Positions 26,348 through 36,360 of a DNA stretch of 64,000 nt are shown piece after piece; position 1 is the stretch's first letter, and each line of letters begins with the position of its first letter. The position numbers were made by a program, and so were the translations under genes. Below the pieces are notes generated by a model that was not told where the DNA came from, ran no database searches, and saw only the letters and a list, made by a program, of their open reading frames with translations. The DNA comes from Streptomyces sp. P3 (lineage in GTDB: Bacteria; Actinomycetota; Actinomycetes; Streptomycetales; Streptomycetaceae), in assembly GCF_003032475.1 (NCBI RefSeq), contig NZ_CP028369.1, positions 992,001 through 1,056,000 on the forward strand, in the 5' to 3' direction.

Positions 26348-27622
26348 ATGACGTCGACGGCCACCCCGAGGTTCTCCGTCTTCACCCCCAGCCACCGAAC
26401 CCGCTTCCTCGACGAGTGCCTGGCGACCCTGCGGGCGCAGACCTGTCCGGACTGGGAGTGGATCGTCCTGCTCAACAACGGCGCCCGCTGGCGGCCGGAG
26501 CACCCCGACGACCGGGTCCGGATCGAGATCGCGGACGACGTCACCGGCGTCGGAGCGGCGAAGCGCAGGGCCTGTGAACTGGCCCGCGGCGAGATCCTCG
26601 TCGAACTCGACCACGACGACCTGCTGGCGAAGGCGTGCCTGGCGGAGCTCGGCAAGGCGTTCGACGAGAATCCCGACGCGGTCTTCGTCTACAGCAACAC
26701 CGCGCAGATCACCGAGGACGGGAAACGGGACGACAGCCGTTTCAACGAGTCGCACGGCTGGCACTACGAGGACGTACGCGTCGACGGCCAGACTCTGCTG
26801 CAGGTCAGGGCGATGGCGCCGACGCCGCACAACATCGCGTACATCTGGTACGCGCCCAACCACGTACGGGCGTTCCGCCGGGACGCCTACGAGAGGGCCG
26901 GCGGGTACGACGCCGCCCGCTCGGTCCTGGACGACCAGGACCTGATGTGCCGTCTGTTCCACGTCGGCGACTTCCACCACATCCCCCGCTGCCTGTACCT
27001 GCAGCGGATGCACCCGGCGAACACCCAGCGCGACCCGGAGACCAACGCGCACATCCAGAGCGAGACGATCGCCCTGTACGACAAGTACATCGAGGCCAAC
27101 GCCCTCGCCTGGACCTACCGAAGGGGACTGCTCGCGCTGGACCTCGGAGCGGCGCACCGCAAGCCGCCCGGCTACCTGGGCGTGGACCAGTACCCGGGCG
27201 AGGGCGTCGACATCGTCGCGACCCTGCCCGGCAGGCTGGACCTGCCCGACGACTCCGTCGGTCTGATGCGGGCCGTGGACTTCCTGGAGCACGTGCCCGC
27301 CAAGATTCCCCTGATCAACGAGCTGTACCGGCTGCTGGCGCCCGGCGGGATGCTCCTCAGCACGACCCCCAGCTCCGACGGCCGTGGCGCGTACCAGGAC
27401 CCGACCCACGTCGCCTACTACAACGAGAACTCCTTCTGGTACTACACGGACGACCAGTACCGCGCCTTCGTGCCCGAGATCGAGGCCAGGTTCCAGAGCT
27501 CGCGGCTCACCACGTGCTTCCCGTCCGCGTGGCACTCCGAGAAGAACATCTCCTATGTGATCGCCAACCTCATCGCGATGAAGGACGGCGCCGATCGCTG
27601 CGGCGGCCCGCTGCTGGTGTAG
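26348..27622 (+). CDS. Glycosyltransferase family 2-methyltransferase fusion protein
   Basis: A 424-residue two-domain protein. Residues 5-225 form a GT-A glycosyltransferase: FSVFTPSHRTRFLDECLATL at the start, the metal and sugar-nucleotide motif ELDHDD at 86-91, and a later DDQDLMCRLFHVG acceptor region. Residues of about 255-424 form a SAM-dependent methyltransferase-like domain (LDLGAAHRKPPGYLGVD, later LLAPGGMLLSTTPSSDGRG), with a shortened glycine loop. It faces the Rml operon across a shared terminator. A role in adding and methylating a sugar such as rhamnose is inferred from context. Confidence 0.85.
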   Translation: MTSTATPRFSVFTPSHRTRFLDECLATLRAQTCPDWEWIVLLNNGARWRPEHPDDRVRIEIADDVTGVGAAKRRACELARGEILVELDHDDLLAKACLAELGKAFDENPDAVFVYSNTAQITEDGKRDDSRFNESHGWHYEDVRVDGQTLLQVRAMAPTPHNIAYIWYAPNHVRAFRRDAYERAGGYDAARSVLDDQDLMCRLFHVGDFHHIPRCLYLQRMHPANTQRDPETNAHIQSETIALYDKYIEANALAWTYRRGLLALDLGAAHRKPPGYLGVDQYPGEGVDIVATLPGRLDLPDDSVGLMRAVDFLEHVPAKIPLINELYRLLAPGGMLLSTTPSSDGRGAYQDPTHVAYYNENSFWYYTDDQYRAFVPEIEARFQSSRLTTCFPSAWHSEKNISYVIANLIAMKDGADRCGGPLLV

Positions 27623-27652
27623 GTCCCGCGCGGACTCGGGCCGGTGCGCGTG

Positions 27653-27690
27653 AGGCGCCCCGCGGGACTCCCGGGTCCCGCGGGGCGCCT
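27653..27690. terminator. Strong bidirectional stem-loop terminator
   Basis: Arms of 15 bp, AGGCGCCCCGCGGGA (27653-27667) and TCCCGCGGGGCGCCT (27676-27690), pair perfectly with an 8-nt loop between the convergent fusion gene and rmlD. Confidence 0.85.
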
Positions 27691-27697
27691 GGTCGGT

Positions 27698-28606
27698 TCA
27701 GGGCCGTCGCGTGGTGCGGGCCCGGGCGGCCAGTGCGGCGAAGACGGGCCGCCTCACGGCCGTGGCCAACTGGTCGTCCCACGGGGGAAGGGGCGCAAGG
27801 CCGGCCCGTAGCCAGCTGCCGTGGCCCAGCACGCCGAACACCGGGCGCGCGGCCGGCCGGGGGAACTTGTCCGAGCCGACGGGCCGGATCCGCTCGGGAT
27901 CGAGACCGCTGAGCCGGAAGGTGTCGCGCGCCAGGCCGCACCAGGTGGTGCGGCCCGCCGACGTGCCGTGGTAGATGCCGGCCGGGGCCCGGCCCGTGAG
28001 CGCGGCGCGGCCGAGGGCGGCCAGCTGCCGGGCGAGCGCCCGGGTCCAGGTCGGCTGACCGTGCTGGTCGGCCACCACGTCCAGGGACTCGCGGCGGGCG
28101 GCGAGTTCGAGCACGGTGGCCACGAAGTTGGGACCGTGCTCGCCGTAGAGCCAGGCGGTGCGCACGACGTAGCCGGTGTCCGGCAGCAGTTCGACGACCG
28201 CCCGCTCGCCCGCCAGTTTGCTCCGGCCGTACGCGTTGACGGGGCCGGTCGGCGCGTCCTCGGGGTACGGCCCGCGGGCGTCGCCCGGGAACACGTAGTC
28301 GGTCGACAGGTGCAGCAGGATCGCGCCGCCGTCCGCGCAGGCGGCGGCGAGGTGCCGGACGCCGGTGCCGTTCACGGCCGTGGCCGCCGCTTCGGACCGC
28401 TCGGCGCCGTCGACGTCCGTCCAGGCGGCGCAGTTGACGACCACGGAGTGGCCGGGGACGGCCGCCCGCACCGCGGCCGGGTCGGTGATGTCGAGCCGGT
28501 CGCGGCCGAGGCCCGTCACCACGGCGTCCGGATCGGCGGTGAGCTCGGCCAGCACGTCCCGGCCGAGGAGCCCGTGGGCGCCGGTGACCAGCCACCTCGT
28601 GGTCAT
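27698..28606 (-). CDS. rmlD: dTDP-4-dehydrorhamnose reductase
   Basis: Last step of dTDP-L-rhamnose synthesis: NAD(P)H reduction of dTDP-4-keto-L-rhamnose. The protein has 302 residues and a Rossmann short-chain reductase fold. It shows the nucleotide motif VTGAHGLLGRDV, the active-site region STDYVFPGDARGPYPEDAP and the catalytic Tyr-Lys pair in NAYGRSKLAGE. Its ATG overlaps the stop of rmlB (ATGA), so the two are translationally coupled. It ends at a strong terminator. Confidence 0.95.
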   Translation of the reverse strand: MTTRWLVTGAHGLLGRDVLAELTADPDAVVTGLGRDRLDITDPAAVRAAVPGHSVVVNCAAWTDVDGAERSEAAATAVNGTGVRHLAAACADGGAILLHLSTDYVFPGDARGPYPEDAPTGPVNAYGRSKLAGERAVVELLPDTGYVVRTAWLYGEHGPNFVATVLELAARRESLDVVADQHGQPTWTRALARQLAALGRAALTGRAPAGIYHGTSAGRTTWCGLARDTFRLSGLDPERIRPVGSDKFPRPAARPVFGVLGHGSWLRAGLAPLPPWDDQLATAVRRPVFAALAARARTTRRP

Positions 28607-29577
28607 CGCGACCCGGCCCTCTCCTTCAGCGGCTCCCACCAGGAGCGGTGGGCGCGGTACCAGGCGACCGTGTCCGCCAGCCCCTGGGTGAAGTCCGTCC
28701 GCGGGACGTAGCCGAGTTCTTCGCGGAGCTTGCTGTCGTCCAGCGAGTAGCGCAGGTCGTGCCCCTTGCGGTCGGGTACGTGCTCGACCCGGTCCCAGTC
28801 CGCCCCGAGGGCGTCCAGCAGCAGACCCGTGAGCTTGTGGTTGCTCAGCTCGGCGCCTCCGCCGATGTGGTAGACCTCCCCGGCCCGGCCGCCGCGCAGG
28901 ACGAGGTCGATGCCCCGGCAGTGGTCGGAGACGTGCAGCCAGTCGCGGACGTTGCGGCCGTCCCCGTACAGGGGGACCGGCTTCCCGTCGAGCAGGTGGG
29001 TGACGAAGAGCGGGACGACCTTCTCGGGGAACTGGTACGGCCCGTAGTTGTTGGTGCAGCGGGTGACCACCACGTCCAGGCCGTGGGTTCGGTGGTGGGC
29101 GAGCGCCAGCAGGTCCGCCCCGGCCTTCGACGCGGAGTACGGGGAGTTCGGGGCCAGCGGACGGCCCTCGGTCCACGACCCCTCGCCGATCGAGCCGTAC
29201 ACCTCGTCCGTGGACACCTGGACGAAGCGGCCGACACCGTGCCGGAGGGCCGCGTCGAGCAGCACCTGCGTACCCAGCACGTTGGTGCGGACGAACGGGC
29301 CGGCGCCCTCGATCGACCGGTCGACGTGCGACTCGGCGGCGAAGTGCACCACCGCGTCCTGGCCCGCCATCACCTGGTCGACGACGTCCGGGTCGCAGAT
29401 GTCGCCCCGCACGAAGGTGTAGCCGGGGGCCCCGGCCACCGATGCCAGGTTGGCCTCGACCCCTGAGTAGGTGAGCTTGTCGAGGACGGTGACCCGTGCT
29501 GCGGGATCCGCGTCGAACTGCCGCCGGACGTATTCGGAACCGATGAATCCGGCACCGCCGGTCACCAGGACGCGCAT
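28603..29577 (-). CDS. rmlB: dTDP-glucose 4,6-dehydratase
   Basis: Second step of dTDP-L-rhamnose synthesis. The protein has 324 residues and is an extended short-chain dehydrogenase. It carries the NAD motif VTGGAGFIGSEYVRR near the start, VDRSIEGAGPFVRTNVLGT and the active-site run QVSTDEVYG. The catalytic Tyr-Lys is in NSPYSASKAGADLL, with NNYGPYQFPEK following. The ATG at 29577 follows GGAGAG. A 160-bp gap separates it from the collagen-like gene upstream, so it may have its own promoter as well. Confidence 0.96.
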   Translation of the reverse strand: MRVLVTGGAGFIGSEYVRRQFDADPAARVTVLDKLTYSGVEANLASVAGAPGYTFVRGDICDPDVVDQVMAGQDAVVHFAAESHVDRSIEGAGPFVRTNVLGTQVLLDAALRHGVGRFVQVSTDEVYGSIGEGSWTEGRPLAPNSPYSASKAGADLLALAHHRTHGLDVVVTRCTNNYGPYQFPEKVVPLFVTHLLDGKPVPLYGDGRNVRDWLHVSDHCRGIDLVLRGGRAGEVYHIGGGAELSNHKLTGLLLDALGADWDRVEHVPDRKGHDLRYSLDDSKLREELGYVPRTDFTQGLADTVAWYRAHRSWWEPLKERAGSR

Positions 29578-29737
29578 GGCTCTCCGAGTTCTCTCACTGC
29601 CCGGCGCTCGGCACCGGGTCGGTCGGACGGACGGGTCCTCGTGCGGCGGCGCCCCCCGAAGCCGAAGCCTCGAAGGGCGCGCGCCGTACAGGTCCGGTGA
29701 GACCGGCGGCCGGTACCGCACCGCCGCTCACGAAGGA

Positions 29738-30667
29738 CTACGGCGTTACGTCGGCGCAGACCACGAAGACCTGGATGGAGTTGTTGGCGGTGACGCCGGC
29801 CTTCCATCCCGTGGGCGGCGACGTGGGCGTGCCGCCGACCGGGGAGTTGTCCACGAGATTGCCGTCGCTGATCGTGGCCCCGCCGCCGGTGGAGACGTCT
29901 CCGAGATCACAGGTGACAATGGCGGATCCCGTCCCCGTCACGGTCTTGACGTACAGGTTGCTGCCGACTCCGCCCGTGGCGCCCTGAGAGCCTTGTGCAC
30001 CCTGGTTGCCCTGGGATCCTTGGTTGCCCTGGACGCCCTGAATGCCCTGGGTTCCCTGGGTTCCCTGCGCGCCGTCGGCACCCTGGAACCCCTGAGTCCC
30101 CTGAGTCCCCTGCGCGCCGTCAGCACCCTGGAACCCCTGAGTTCCCTGGAACCCTTGAGTCCCCTGCGCACCGTCGGCACCTTGGAACCCCTGGGTTCCC
30201 TGGGTTCCCTGCGCGCCGTCGGCACCCTGGAACCCCTGGGCTCCCTGGAACCCCTGGGCTCCCTGGAATCCCTGCGGTCCTCGCGGCCCCTGCGGGCCCT
30301 GGGGTCCTCGCGGCCCCTGCGGGCCCGGCTTCCCGGGCTTGCCCTCGTGCCCCTGAGGGCCACGCGGCCCTCTTGGGCCGACGTGATCACGGCCGTCGCC
30401 GTGCCTGTCCGCGGGAGTCATCGTGGTGCGGTCGGGCTGCACCACCGCCTGACCCTCGGCGCCGGCCCTGCGGATCGCGTCGGCGATGGCCGCGGAGGGC
30501 TTCTCGATCGGGCGCAGTCGGTTCACGGCGCTGTCGACGCCGGGTCGGCCCGCCACGTCGGCGACGGCCACGGCGCTGGGGACGACACTGAGCGCCACGG
30601 CGACCGCGCCGGCCGAGACCAGCGTGGCGGATTTCAGGCGCGAGATTCGGATCGTTCTACGGTTCAA
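29738..30667 (-). CDS. Secreted collagen-like repeat protein
   Basis: A 309-residue exported protein. The TTG start was chosen because GAGGAAGG sits 5 nt before it. A basic N-terminus and hydrophobic segment form a signal peptide (about 1-37). After a linker, residues of about 97-233 are uninterrupted Gly-X-Y triplets, first Pro/Arg/Lys-rich (GPRGPQGHEGKPGKPG), then Gln/Thr/Ala/Phe-rich (FQGADGAQGTQG repeated). A non-repeat domain of 76 residues (about 234-309) with two Cys may start trimer folding. The gene sits inside the rhamnose operon between rmlC and rmlB, so glycosylation is plausible. Thr-rich triplets could be acceptors. Confidence 0.88.
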   Translation of the reverse strand: MNRRTIRISRLKSATLVSAGAVAVALSVVPSAVAVADVAGRPGVDSAVNRLRPIEKPSAAIADAIRRAGAEGQAVVQPDRTTMTPADRHGDGRDHVGPRGPRGPQGHEGKPGKPGPQGPRGPQGPQGPRGPQGFQGAQGFQGAQGFQGADGAQGTQGTQGFQGADGAQGTQGFQGTQGFQGADGAQGTQGTQGFQGADGAQGTQGTQGIQGVQGNQGSQGNQGAQGSQGATGGVGSNLYVKTVTGTGSAIVTCDLGDVSTGGGATISDGNLVDNSPVGGTPTSPPTGWKAGVTANNSIQVFVVCADVTP

Positions 30668-30907
30668 GTGAACCTTCCTCACAATGGGGAGGGGATCAGA
30701 CAGCAAGCGCGCACTGAGTGAGTTTCAAGGCGCTCGCATGCCACTTCACCTACGGTCACGAACAACGACGATATTCTTTACCTTTTGTGCAAGGACTATG
30801 AATGATCGTCCGATATAGTGGCCTCGGATCACCCGGGCGGCGTCCATACCTTTGCCGTCCCCGCACCATTCCGCCGAAAGAGTGGAACTTGCCGGGCGGC
30901 AGCCGCG
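30668..30907 (-). promoter_or_regulatory. AT-richer intergenic region before the collagen-like gene
   Basis: A 240-bp gap between rmlC and the collagen-like gene, with much lower GC around 30740-30850. It probably contains a promoter for the collagen-like gene. TTGCAC on the minus strand (near 30789-30794) is a weak -35 candidate, with no clear -10. Confidence 0.35.
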
Positions 30908-31507
30908 CTAAGCGCCGCTGCCGAGAATTCCGCGATACGCGACGCAGTCCTCGAACGACGGCAGCAGCCCCTGCCGCTCCGCCTGTTCCAGCGTGGGCGC
31001 CGCCGCGTCCTTTGCGGAAAGGAGCGGCACGAGGCCGTCGGGCCAGGCGATGCCCAGTGCCGGGTCGAGCGGATGGATCCCGAACTCGCGTTGCGGCGCG
31101 TATCCCCGCGAACACAGATAGACGACGGTGGAGTCGTCCTCCAACGCCATGAAGGCGTGCCCGAGCCCTTCCGAGAGATAGACGCAGCGGTGCGTCGTGT
31201 CGTCGAGCCGGACCGCCTCCCACGTCCCGAAGCCCGGGGAGCCGACGCGGATGTCGACCACCACGTCGAGGACGGCGCCGCTGACACAGGTGACGTACTT
31301 CGCCTGTCCCGGCGGGACCGCCGCCGCGTGGACGCCACGGAGCGTCCCGCGAACGGAGCGTGAGCAGTTGGCCTGCTCGAGCCGGAGTCCCTGGCCGACG
31401 ACGTCCCGGAACACGTCGGACCGGAACCACTCGTGGAAGCGGCCCCGGTCGTCCGTGAACACCGCCGGCGTGTCCACCCAGGCCCCTTCGATGCCGAGCG
31501 GTCTCAT
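30908..31507 (-). CDS. rmlC: dTDP-4-dehydrorhamnose 3,5-epimerase
   Basis: Third step of dTDP-L-rhamnose synthesis. The protein has 199 residues and a cupin fold. Key segments are [15 protein letters not shown], with the catalytic His of RGVH, then [20 protein letters not shown] and the later [15 protein letters not shown]. The usual HFQ after RG(L/V)H reads HAA, a mild deviation also found in sugar-epimerase relatives. Its ATG overlaps the rmlA stop (ATGA). Confidence 0.92.
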
Positions 31508-32451
31508 ACGACCGCCTCCTTCCGCCCGCTCAGCGCGCTCGCGTCACGCGGGGGGTGTCCGCCCGGCGGGGACGCGACGACCTGCCGGGAGTCCTCCAGC
31601 AGTTCCAGCAGGTACCGGCCGTATCCGCTCTTGAGGAGCGGCCGGGCCAGTTCGCGGAGCCGGTCGTCGTCGACCAGGCCGGCCCGCCAGACCGCTTCCT
31701 CGAGGCAGCCGATCTTGAATCCCTGACGCTCCTCGATCACCCGGACGAACTCCGAGGCCTGCACCATGGAGCCGAAGGTGCCGGTGTCGAGCCACGCGGT
31801 GCCCCGGTCGAGCCGGGTGACCTGCAGCGCCCCGGCCTCCAGATAGACGCGGTTGAGGTCGGTGATCTCCAACTCGCCCCGGGCGCTGGGCCGCAGGCCC
31901 CGGGCGATGTCCACGGCGCGGTTGTCGTAGAAGTACAGTCCGGGCACGGCGTACCGGGACCTCGGCCGGGCGGGTTTCTCCTCGATGGAGACCGCCCTGC
32001 CCATGTCGTCGAACTCCACGACGCCGTAGGCCGACGGATTGGCGACCTGATAGGCGAACACCCGGCCGCCCTGAGGGTCGCCGTGCAGAGCCAGCCGGGT
32101 GCCGAGGCCGCTCCCATGGAAGATGTTGTCGCCCAGAATGAGGGCGACGGATTCGTCGCCGAGGAAATCGGCCCCCAGCAGGAAAGCCTGGGCGATGCCC
32201 TCCGGGCGTTTCTGGGCCGTGTAATGCAGCCGTAGCCCCAGTTCACCGCCGTCGCCGAGCAACCGGCTGAACTGGCCCTGGTCTTCGGGAGTGGTGATGA
32301 TCAGAATGTCCCGGACGCCGGCCATGACGAGGGTGGAAAGCGGATAGTAAATCATGGGTTTGTCGAAGACCGGCAGCAGTTGCTTGGACACCGAGCGGGT
32401 CAACGGCCAAAGTCGCGAGCCGGTGCCTCCGGCCAACAGGATTCCGCGCAC
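31504..32451 (-). CDS. rmlA: Glucose-1-phosphate thymidylyltransferase
   Basis: First step of dTDP-L-rhamnose synthesis, making dTDP-glucose. The protein has 315 residues. The nucleotidyltransferase signature [14 protein letters not shown] lies at the N-terminus. It is followed by [20 protein letters not shown], the metal-binding region [11 protein letters not shown], and a C-terminal helical part. GTG start with a poor ribosome site. It leads the run rmlA-rmlC-collagen-like-rmlB-rmlD. The last 25 residues are Pro/Ser/Arg-rich and extend beyond the usual fold. Confidence 0.95.
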
Positions 32452-35712: not shown

Positions 35713-36360
35713 ATGAACGCATCCGGCGCGGGGCCCGACCCCCGCCGCTGGTGGGCCCTCGCCGCCCTGGTCACGAGCATGCTCACGCTCGGCTTCGACA
35801 CGACGATCCTCAACGTGGCGCTCCCGACCATGGCGGAGCGGCTCGGTGCCACCACCGGGGAACAGCAGTGGATGGCCGACTCCTACGTCGTCGTGTTCGC
35901 GGCGCTGATGCTCCCGGCCGGGCTCCTCGGCGACCGCTTCGGCCGCCGCCGGATGCTCGTCGCCGGCCTCGGGATCTTCTTCGCCGGCTCACTCCTCGGC
36001 GCCCTCGCCGGGGACGTCGCCTCGGTCGGTATCGCCCTGCTCGGCAGCCTGCTCGCCGGGACCTTCCGAGACCGCCTCGACGTCACCGGGCTGCCCGCCG
36101 GGGCCGCCGACACCGCCGGGGACTCGGTGGTCGCCACCCGCCTGATCGCCGAGCGGACGCAGCTGACCACTCTCGCCGGATCCGCCGACGACGCCTACGT
36201 CCACGGCATGGGACTGGTCCTGCTGGTCTGCGCGGCGGCCGCACTGGCCTCGGCGCTGCCGACGGCGGCGTTCCTGCCGGGGAGTCCGCGCGTCGAGGAC
36301 GCCGGCCCCCGGGACGCCGGTCCCGACGTGGTCGCGCCGCGGAGCGATGCCCGACAATGA
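35713..36360 (+). pseudogene. MFS drug transporter with the middle deleted in frame
   Basis: A 215-codon frame. Residues 1-100 are the N-terminal helices of a 14-helix DHA2 transporter (FDTTILNVALPTMAERLG, GDRFGRRRMLVAGLGI). After GDVAS the reading jumps directly to the last part of the same kind of protein (VGIALLGSLLAGTFRDRLDV, HGMGLVLLVCAAAALAS). Roughly 250-300 residues are missing. Only about 5 helices remain, so transport is very unlikely. There is no ribosome site before the ATG. The TetR gene overlaps the stop (ATGA). Confidence 0.75.

What the first reader, a model, noticed from the sequence alone, without database searches (positions are those of the whole stretch)
26348..32451. Collagen-like secreted protein inside a complete dTDP-L-rhamnose operon
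A gene for an exported protein with about 45 Gly-X-Y triplets lies between rmlC and rmlB. A glycosyltransferase-methyltransferase fusion faces the operon. In Bacillus, exosporium collagen-like proteins (BclA) are rhamnosylated and methylated sugars are added. A similar collagen glycosylation cassette in Streptomyces would be new to me. The physical linkage is seen directly. Glycosylation is inferred.
Basis: partly seen in the sequence, partly recalled or inferred. Interest (0 to 1): 0.75.

Follow-up and report, generated by a model that had tools for sequence, protein, structure and literature searches.

The report
Actinobacterial collagen-decorating gene cassette
Some Streptomyces and related bacteria, and some phages, carry a gene for a collagen-like protein beside a gene for one double enzyme that looks built to attach a sugar and methylate it; in this Streptomyces the genes that make the likely sugar, rhamnose, sit in the same locus.

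Summary
In detail: a secreted protein with 45 Gly-X-Y triplets (29738-30667, -) lies between rmlC and rmlB, and a GT2-methyltransferase fusion (26348-27622, +) faces the operon. The conserved unit, however, is collagen plus fusion, not collagen plus rml. Of 80 named fusion loci (Streptomyces, Kitasatospora, Frankia, Micromonospora, other actinobacterial MAGs) 77 have a collagen-like ORF within 4.3 kb; two of the three misses are contig ends. Of 20 rml loci in fusion-less genomes 0 have one. In 199 genus genomes the collagen's N-terminal family (E<1e-10) occurs in exactly the 16 that have the fusion. rml genes are optional (26 of 80 loci, 25 Streptomyces). All 50 fusion genomes tested encode RmlD, against 78 of 183 fusion-less genus genomes; in 7 of 16 the local copy is the only one over the cut-off. 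In 47 of 80 loci a TPR gene abuts the fusion gene. Phage relatives lie in structural modules, often near collagen-like ORFs. Best reading: dedicated glycosylation of the collagen-like protein, probably with (O-methyl-)rhamnose. The acceptor is unknown; nine of 77 linked repeats lack Ser/Thr. No biochemistry was seen.

The parts
26348..27622 (+). GT2 glycosyltransferase - class I methyltransferase fusion, 424 aa, no signal peptide seen by eye; GT-A domain about residues 5-257, MT domain about 260-410
   Evidence: Pfam; AlphaFold2 mean pLDDT 94.9; GT-A fold matches; match at E<=1e-40 in 16 of 199 genus genomes
27698..28606 (-). rmlD, dTDP-4-dehydrorhamnose reductase; overlaps rmlB by 4 nt; the only RmlD over the curated cut-off in this genome
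   Evidence: TIGR01214 262.8 bits, cut-off 224.05
28603..29577 (-). rmlB, dTDP-glucose 4,6-dehydratase
   Evidence: TIGR01181 431.4 bits, cut-off 365.1
29738..30667 (-). secreted collagen-like protein, 309 aa: signal peptide (by eye), linker, 45 Gly-X-Y triplets, cap of about 75 aa with two Cys
   Evidence: PF01391 82.2 bits; sequence and triplet count; N-terminal family found only in fusion-bearing genus genomes at E<1e-10
30673..30680 (-). GAGGAAGG ribosome-binding site five bases before the TTG start at 30667
   Evidence: read in the sequence
30668..30907 (-). 240-nt gap between rmlC and the collagen-like gene; room for a separate promoter
   Evidence: coordinates; no sigma-70-type match
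30908..31507 (-). rmlC, dTDP-4-dehydrorhamnose 3,5-epimerase-like
   Evidence: PF00908 189.9 bits; TIGR01221 145.3, cut-off 155.75
31504..32451 (-). rmlA, glucose-1-phosphate thymidylyltransferase (a start at 32391 is also possible)
   Evidence: TIGR01207 440.2 bits, cut-off 360.65

Best explanation
The fusion enzyme is a dedicated modifier of the neighbouring collagen-like protein. In the cytoplasm its GT-A domain transfers a sugar, most likely L-rhamnose from dTDP-L-rhamnose, to the collagen-like protein or to a glycan already on it. Its C-terminal domain then methylates that sugar with S-adenosylmethionine. The decorated protein is exported through its signal peptide and assembles as a surface or secreted fibre. 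In lineages that have it, a membrane-anchored extracytoplasmic TPR protein, translated together with the enzyme, receives or holds the fibre. In one Streptomyces clade an rmlACBD set was recruited into the locus to supply the donor; it was later lost in several branches, and where checked another rml set is present. Shown: the genes, their linkage, co-occurrence and abutting order. Inferred: enzyme activity, donor, methylation, acceptor, TPR role and fibre assembly.
Confidence: 0.58

Rival explanations
1. The fusion and rml genes build a methylated, rhamnose-containing surface polysaccharide or secondary glycan; the collagen-like protein is a co-regulated surface fibre that binds or carries it but is not the enzyme's substrate.
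For: The nearest solved folds include chondroitin and heparosan synthases and teichoic-acid GTs. Some loci carry further GTs (GT2-TPR, GT2_F18) and a DUF2079 membrane protein. I did not annotate the flanks of non-rml loci with profile searches, so a polysaccharide cluster there is not excluded.
Against: In 53 of 80 loci the pair stands with no rml gene within 8 kb. Some phage copies lie in structural modules with a head, tape-measure or tail-sheath gene and beside collagen-like ORFs, where a host polysaccharide role is less likely.
Confidence: 0.2
2. The fusion modifies the collagen with another sugar (for example GlcNAc or Gal); the rml operon serves rhamnose needs of the whole cell and sits here for reasons unrelated to the collagen.
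For: The window's rmlD is the only one over the cut-off in the genome, so the operon must meet every need for dTDP-rhamnose there. The pair exists without rml in most loci. SgtA, the characterised collagen GT, used only UDP-GlcNAc of the donors tried.
Against: rml genes enter the locus between or beside the pair (16 of 80 with the window's exact order), and all 16 fusion genomes in the genus sample keep RmlD although 105 of 183 others lack it over the cut-off.
Confidence: 0.2
3. The collagen gene is a chance insertion in an rml operon and has nothing to do with the neighbouring enzymes.
For: Collagen-model matches are common in the genus (PF01391 matches in 159 of 199 genomes, many on both strands of one repeat).
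Against: 77 of 80 against 0 of 20, and exact co-occurrence in 199 genomes at E<1e-10.
Confidence: 0.02

Closest known systems
SgtA-BclA3 of Clostridioides difficile (PMC7157674; passages and section 21 read)
   Same: A GT-A glycosyltransferase encoded beside a collagen-like protein; TPRs belong to the system; the GT is shown to modify peptides of the collagen region.
   Different: SgtA is GT+TPR with no methyltransferase named, uses UDP-GlcNAc, acts on Thr (and Ser in synthetic peptides), and belongs to a spore surface. Here a methyltransferase is fused to the GT, the TPR protein is separate or absent, rml genes may join, and repeats are Gln-rich.
BclA glycosylation in the Bacillus cereus group (exosporium tetrasaccharide of three rhamnoses and anthrose: abstract start of PMC6947953 in the listing; rml genes near bclA and methylated rhamnose are recalled, not checked)
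   Same: Collagen-like glycoprotein layer with rhamnose; recalled linkage to a rhamnose operon.
   Different: No endospore; Y position Gln rather than Thr; fused GT-MT; N- and C-terminal regions not shown to be related.
Mimivirus bifunctional lysyl hydroxylase and glycosyltransferase (a reference title shown; name L230 and details recalled)
   Same: One polypeptide with two collagen-modifying activities.
   Different: Hydroxylase plus glucosyltransferase acting on hydroxylysine (recalled); here GT plus methyltransferase. Hydroxylases were not searched for.
RmlT and SpsA (solved GT2 structures)
   Same: Fold of the GT domain; RmlT structures with TDP-rhamnose and SpsA structures with dTDP exist.
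   Different: RmlT acts on wall teichoic acid (recalled); the matches cover the GT domain only.

Membership tests
BclA-type collagen glycoprotein system | Gly-X-Y tract in an exported or surface protein | tested here: met
   45 triplets, PF01391 82.2 bits; signal peptide read in the sequence
BclA-type collagen glycoprotein system | Thr-rich Y positions (GPT repeats) as glycan acceptors | tested here: not met
   window Y: Gln 33, Thr 1 of 45; 77 collagens: Y Gln 63.1%, Thr 17.4%
BclA-type collagen glycoprotein system | rhamnose biosynthesis genes at the locus (recalled as a BclA feature) | tested here: met
   rml set in the window; but only 26 of 80 fusion loci have any
BclA-type collagen glycoprotein system | C-terminal TNF/C1q-like trimerisation domain | tested here: inconclusive
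   Pfam finds only Collagen in the protein; cap of about 75 aa with 2 Cys in 71 of 76; not folded
BclA-type collagen glycoprotein system | glycan attached to the protein | not testable with these tools
   needs mass spectrometry
SgtA-type collagen glycosyltransferase | GT-A/GT2 domain encoded next to a collagen-like gene | tested here: met
SgtA-type collagen glycosyltransferase | TPR domain fused at the C-terminus | tested here: not met
   the C-terminus is a methyltransferase; a separate TPR gene abuts the fusion in 47 of 80 loci but not in the window; a separate GT2-TPR protein matches in 11 of 80 loci, one of them at 38% identity
dTDP-L-rhamnose pathway (RmlABCD) | all four enzymes over curated cut-offs | tested here: inconclusive
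   A, B, D over NCBIfam cut-offs; C 145.3 against 155.75 in TIGR01221 but 189.9 against 27 in PF00908

The most novel reading that the evidence does not exclude
The GT2-methyltransferase fusion founds a widespread family of one-polypeptide collagen-decorating enzymes shared by Actinobacteria and phages. It puts O-methylated deoxyhexose on Gly-X-Y fibres, possibly at a residue other than Ser/Thr since some linked repeats have none. A co-translated extracytoplasmic TPR protein handles the product, and in Streptomyces a donor pathway was built into the locus.
Probability: 0.4. Interest if true: 0.85.

Novelty: new variant of a known kind. Interest (0 to 1): 0.72.

Why it matters
A review of prokaryotic collagen-like proteins says that in most cases there is no glycosylation and names only Bacillus and C. 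difficile BclA proteins as glycosylated (passages of PMC8968730). This locus points to a conserved, testable enzyme family in Streptomyces, Micromonospora, Frankia and other actinobacteria, with a substrate candidate next door and a likely donor. It would also tie bacterial collagen-like proteins to collagen-like proteins of phages through one enzyme family, and could give a bifunctional tool for making glycosylated collagen-like biomaterials.

Tried and rejected
Chance insertion was rejected. The idea that rml plus collagen is the conserved unit was rejected: 53 of 80 loci keep the pair with no rml gene within 8 kb. Conserved Thr acceptors were rejected. PF01391 as a presence test was useless: matches in 159 of 199 genus genomes, many on both strands of the same repeat. 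Of the own genome's 6 matches only 2 are in the listing: the window's gene and a GPP run (L206) whose frame overlaps two other ORFs. A first AlphaFold2 job on 35 sequences left most of the MT domain below pLDDT 50; adding viral relatives fixed it. Fold matches do not tell donors apart; the MT domain was not searched alone. A close-kin search of viral contigs with the window's RmlD found no relative. Cultured phages gave one relative at E<=1e-30, S-CRM01 at 37.9% identity, under two accessions. Literature: nine term combinations in the held PMC library showed no description of this pair in the listings or in the passages read; most subscription journals are not held, so this is no proof of absence. 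Passages were read in PMC8968730, PMC10202952, PMC10050317, PMC4750369 and PMC7157674, and section 21 of the last; the other papers were seen in listings only.

Limits: the 80 named loci are the best 80 of 109 confirmed, found through two conserved peptides of the fusion; 7 of them lie in genomes of the 199-genome sample (contigs of the same length and place). The 20 control loci were picked by me from the high rmlC matches, not strictly the top 20; one (L099) is only 9 kb. For several named loci contigs end near the fusion, so local absence of rml is not certain there. Statistics are not corrected for kinship. One search was given 50 genomes: 16 from the sample and 34 of the 54 named no-rml loci. 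L094 and L097 were left out of alignment A3. Signal peptides, membrane helices and lipoboxes were read by eye.

Full report
OBSERVATION. The window lies in a 9.85-Mb single-contig genome. The gene order rmlA-rmlC-collagen-rmlB-rmlD (minus strand), facing a GT2-methyltransferase fusion (plus strand), is as described. rmlA, rmlB and rmlD pass NCBIfam cut-offs; rmlC is clear in Pfam and 10 bits short in TIGR01221. The collagen-like protein starts at a TTG with a strong ribosome-binding site and has 309 aa, a signal peptide by eye, 45 Gly-X-Y triplets and a cap of about 75 aa with two cysteines.

THE CONSERVED UNIT IS COLLAGEN PLUS FUSION. The fusion (E<=1e-40) was found in 16 of 199 genus genomes. 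I fetched the 15 other loci; all have a collagen-like ORF near the fusion. In three of them (L013, L014, L015) no rml gene was found in the fetched stretch and the collagen gene sits directly beside the fusion. A model of the collagen's N-terminal region found the same 16 genomes and no other below E=1e-10; the next match has E=2.3e-4, and 10 fusion-less genomes match between that and 0.01. Thirteen of the 16 loci went into that model, so the positives are partly circular, but the 183 absences are not; 26 candidates per genome were scored. In G034 the match lies on another contig than the fusion, and the ORF at the fusion locus lacks the usual N-terminus.

BREADTH. A scan of named genomes with the fusion alignment kept 80 of 109 confirmed loci. 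77 of 80 have a collagen-like ORF within 4,233 bp, median 754 bp, 46 on the same strand and 31 opposite. The misses are L026 and L034, where the contig ends soon after the fusion, and L065 (Frankia sp. AiPs1), a real exception. Hosts are Streptomyces, Kitasatospora, Frankia, Micromonospora, a record labelled Saccharothrix, and MAGs labelled Solirubrobacterales, Acidimicrobiales, Frankiaceae and others. In an even sample of the phylum 6 of 396 genomes have a match at E<=1e-40, one of them only in two partial pieces. Control: 20 rml loci picked from the high rmlC matches in fusion-less genomes have 0 collagen ORFs; where an rmlA is found there (19 of 20) it is 32-37% identical to the window's. 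The fusion stays 83-97% identical to the window's across the 15 other genus loci, whereas the collagen N-termini of 12 of them are 34-79% identical.

HISTORY. A FastTree tree of the 80 loci plus the window needs 7 changes for the rml label and 2 for relative strand. The order collagen-(TPR)-fusion on one strand is spread over the deep branches; the convergent order with rml between or beside is found in one Streptomyces set (36 rows, 25 with rml), in which rml is missing again in several branches. Outside that set only L051 and L093 carry the rml label. Near the window (a 10-row set), 3 rows have rml and 7 do not, and all but the contig-end row L026 keep the collagen. The window's exact order occurs in 16 of 80 loci; 53 have the pair with no rml gene within 8 kb. 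So the rml set most likely joined an existing pair.

RHAMNOSE DEMAND. If the enzyme uses dTDP-L-rhamnose, a fusion genome must be able to make it. 50 of 50 fusion genomes tested encode RmlD over the curated cut-off; among fusion-less genus genomes 78 of 183 do (94 of 199 in all, 16 of them with the fusion). Among the 16, RmlD over the cut-off is at the locus only in 7 (window included), elsewhere only in 8, both in 1, nowhere in 0 (my reading against one search places). Where the local copy is interrupted (G101, G116) another exists. In G181 the other set lies about 9.5 kb from the fusion, so calling it elsewhere is arguable. Fisher p is 3e-6 for 16/16 against 78/183 and 0.0014 for the local-against-elsewhere table, uncorrected for kinship. 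In the window's genome the local rmlD is the only one over the cut-off, so the operon may serve other needs too.

THE TPR PARTNER. In 47 of 80 loci a TPR protein ends between 16 bases inside and 52 bases before the fusion's matched start; 23 of these overlap by exactly 4 nt, a sign of coupled translation. In those that I read, its N-terminus is either a membrane helix after basic residues (Streptomyces) or a lipobox (for example LLTGVTACS in Micromonospora). So the TPR part should lie outside the membrane. The window's 10-row set shows none. Eleven of 80 loci match a separate GT2-TPR protein, the domain plan of SgtA.

ACCEPTOR. In 5604 triplets from 77 collagens Y is Gln 63.1%, Thr 17.4%; X is Ala 37.7%, Ser 11.0%, Thr 9.8%. 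Nine collagens, one of them truncated, have no Ser/Thr in the counted repeats. All seven that I printed do have Ser/Thr in the flanking regions. The acceptor may therefore lie outside the repeat, or differ between lineages.

PHAGES. In three loci checked the fusion lies in a stretch with a major head protein (L153), a tape measure (L147) or a tail sheath gene (L133). It lies directly beside long collagen-like ORFs in L187, L153, L202 and L189, and one small ORF away in L184. Of 23 viral loci with at least 5 kb on both sides 15 have a collagen ORF within 5 kb; collapsing records with identical coordinates, by eye, leaves about 10 of 18. Over all 80, 21 have one. So in phages the pairing is frequent, not general.

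KNOWN OR NEW. The closest tested case is SgtA-BclA3 of C. difficile. The B. anthracis exosporium carries a rhamnose-anthrose tetrasaccharide (abstract start of PMC6947953). The parallel with Bacillus rml genes near bclA is recalled only. I found no description of the GT2-MT/collagen pair in nine searches of the held library. I call it a new variant of a known kind: dedicated collagen glycosylation, with a fused methyltransferase, a separate TPR partner and an optional donor operon.

Noticed in passing
L187, L153, L184, L202, L189, L147, L133 (viral contigs): Relatives of the GT2-MT fusion sit in or near phage structural modules, often directly beside very long collagen-like ORFs.
   Followed up: partly
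47 of 80 loci, e.g. L087:9384-10001, L047:9597-10004: A TPR protein with a membrane helix or lipobox (by eye) is encoded flush with the fusion gene (often a 4-nt overlap), although the enzyme looks cytoplasmic and the TPR part extracytoplasmic.
   Followed up: partly
L005:12966-14081, L035, L036, L037, L039, L067 and others: A separate GT2-TPR protein with SgtA-like architecture occurs in a subset of Streptomyces loci (11 of 80 loci match).
   Followed up: partly
L009 (rmlB, rmlD) and L006 (rmlD): Local rml genes are interrupted in two genomes (G116, G101) that hold another RmlD over the cut-off elsewhere.
   Followed up: yes
window 35713-36360: An MFS-like ORF of 215 aa with what look like only the first and last parts of an exporter, next to a TetR-like gene; read by eye, no profile search.
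   Followed up: no
A0A6J5LLV3 (BFVD), rank 1: A 1443-aa uncultured Caudovirales phage protein matches 398 columns of the fusion model at 26% identity; the other roughly 1000 residues were not examined.
   Followed up: no
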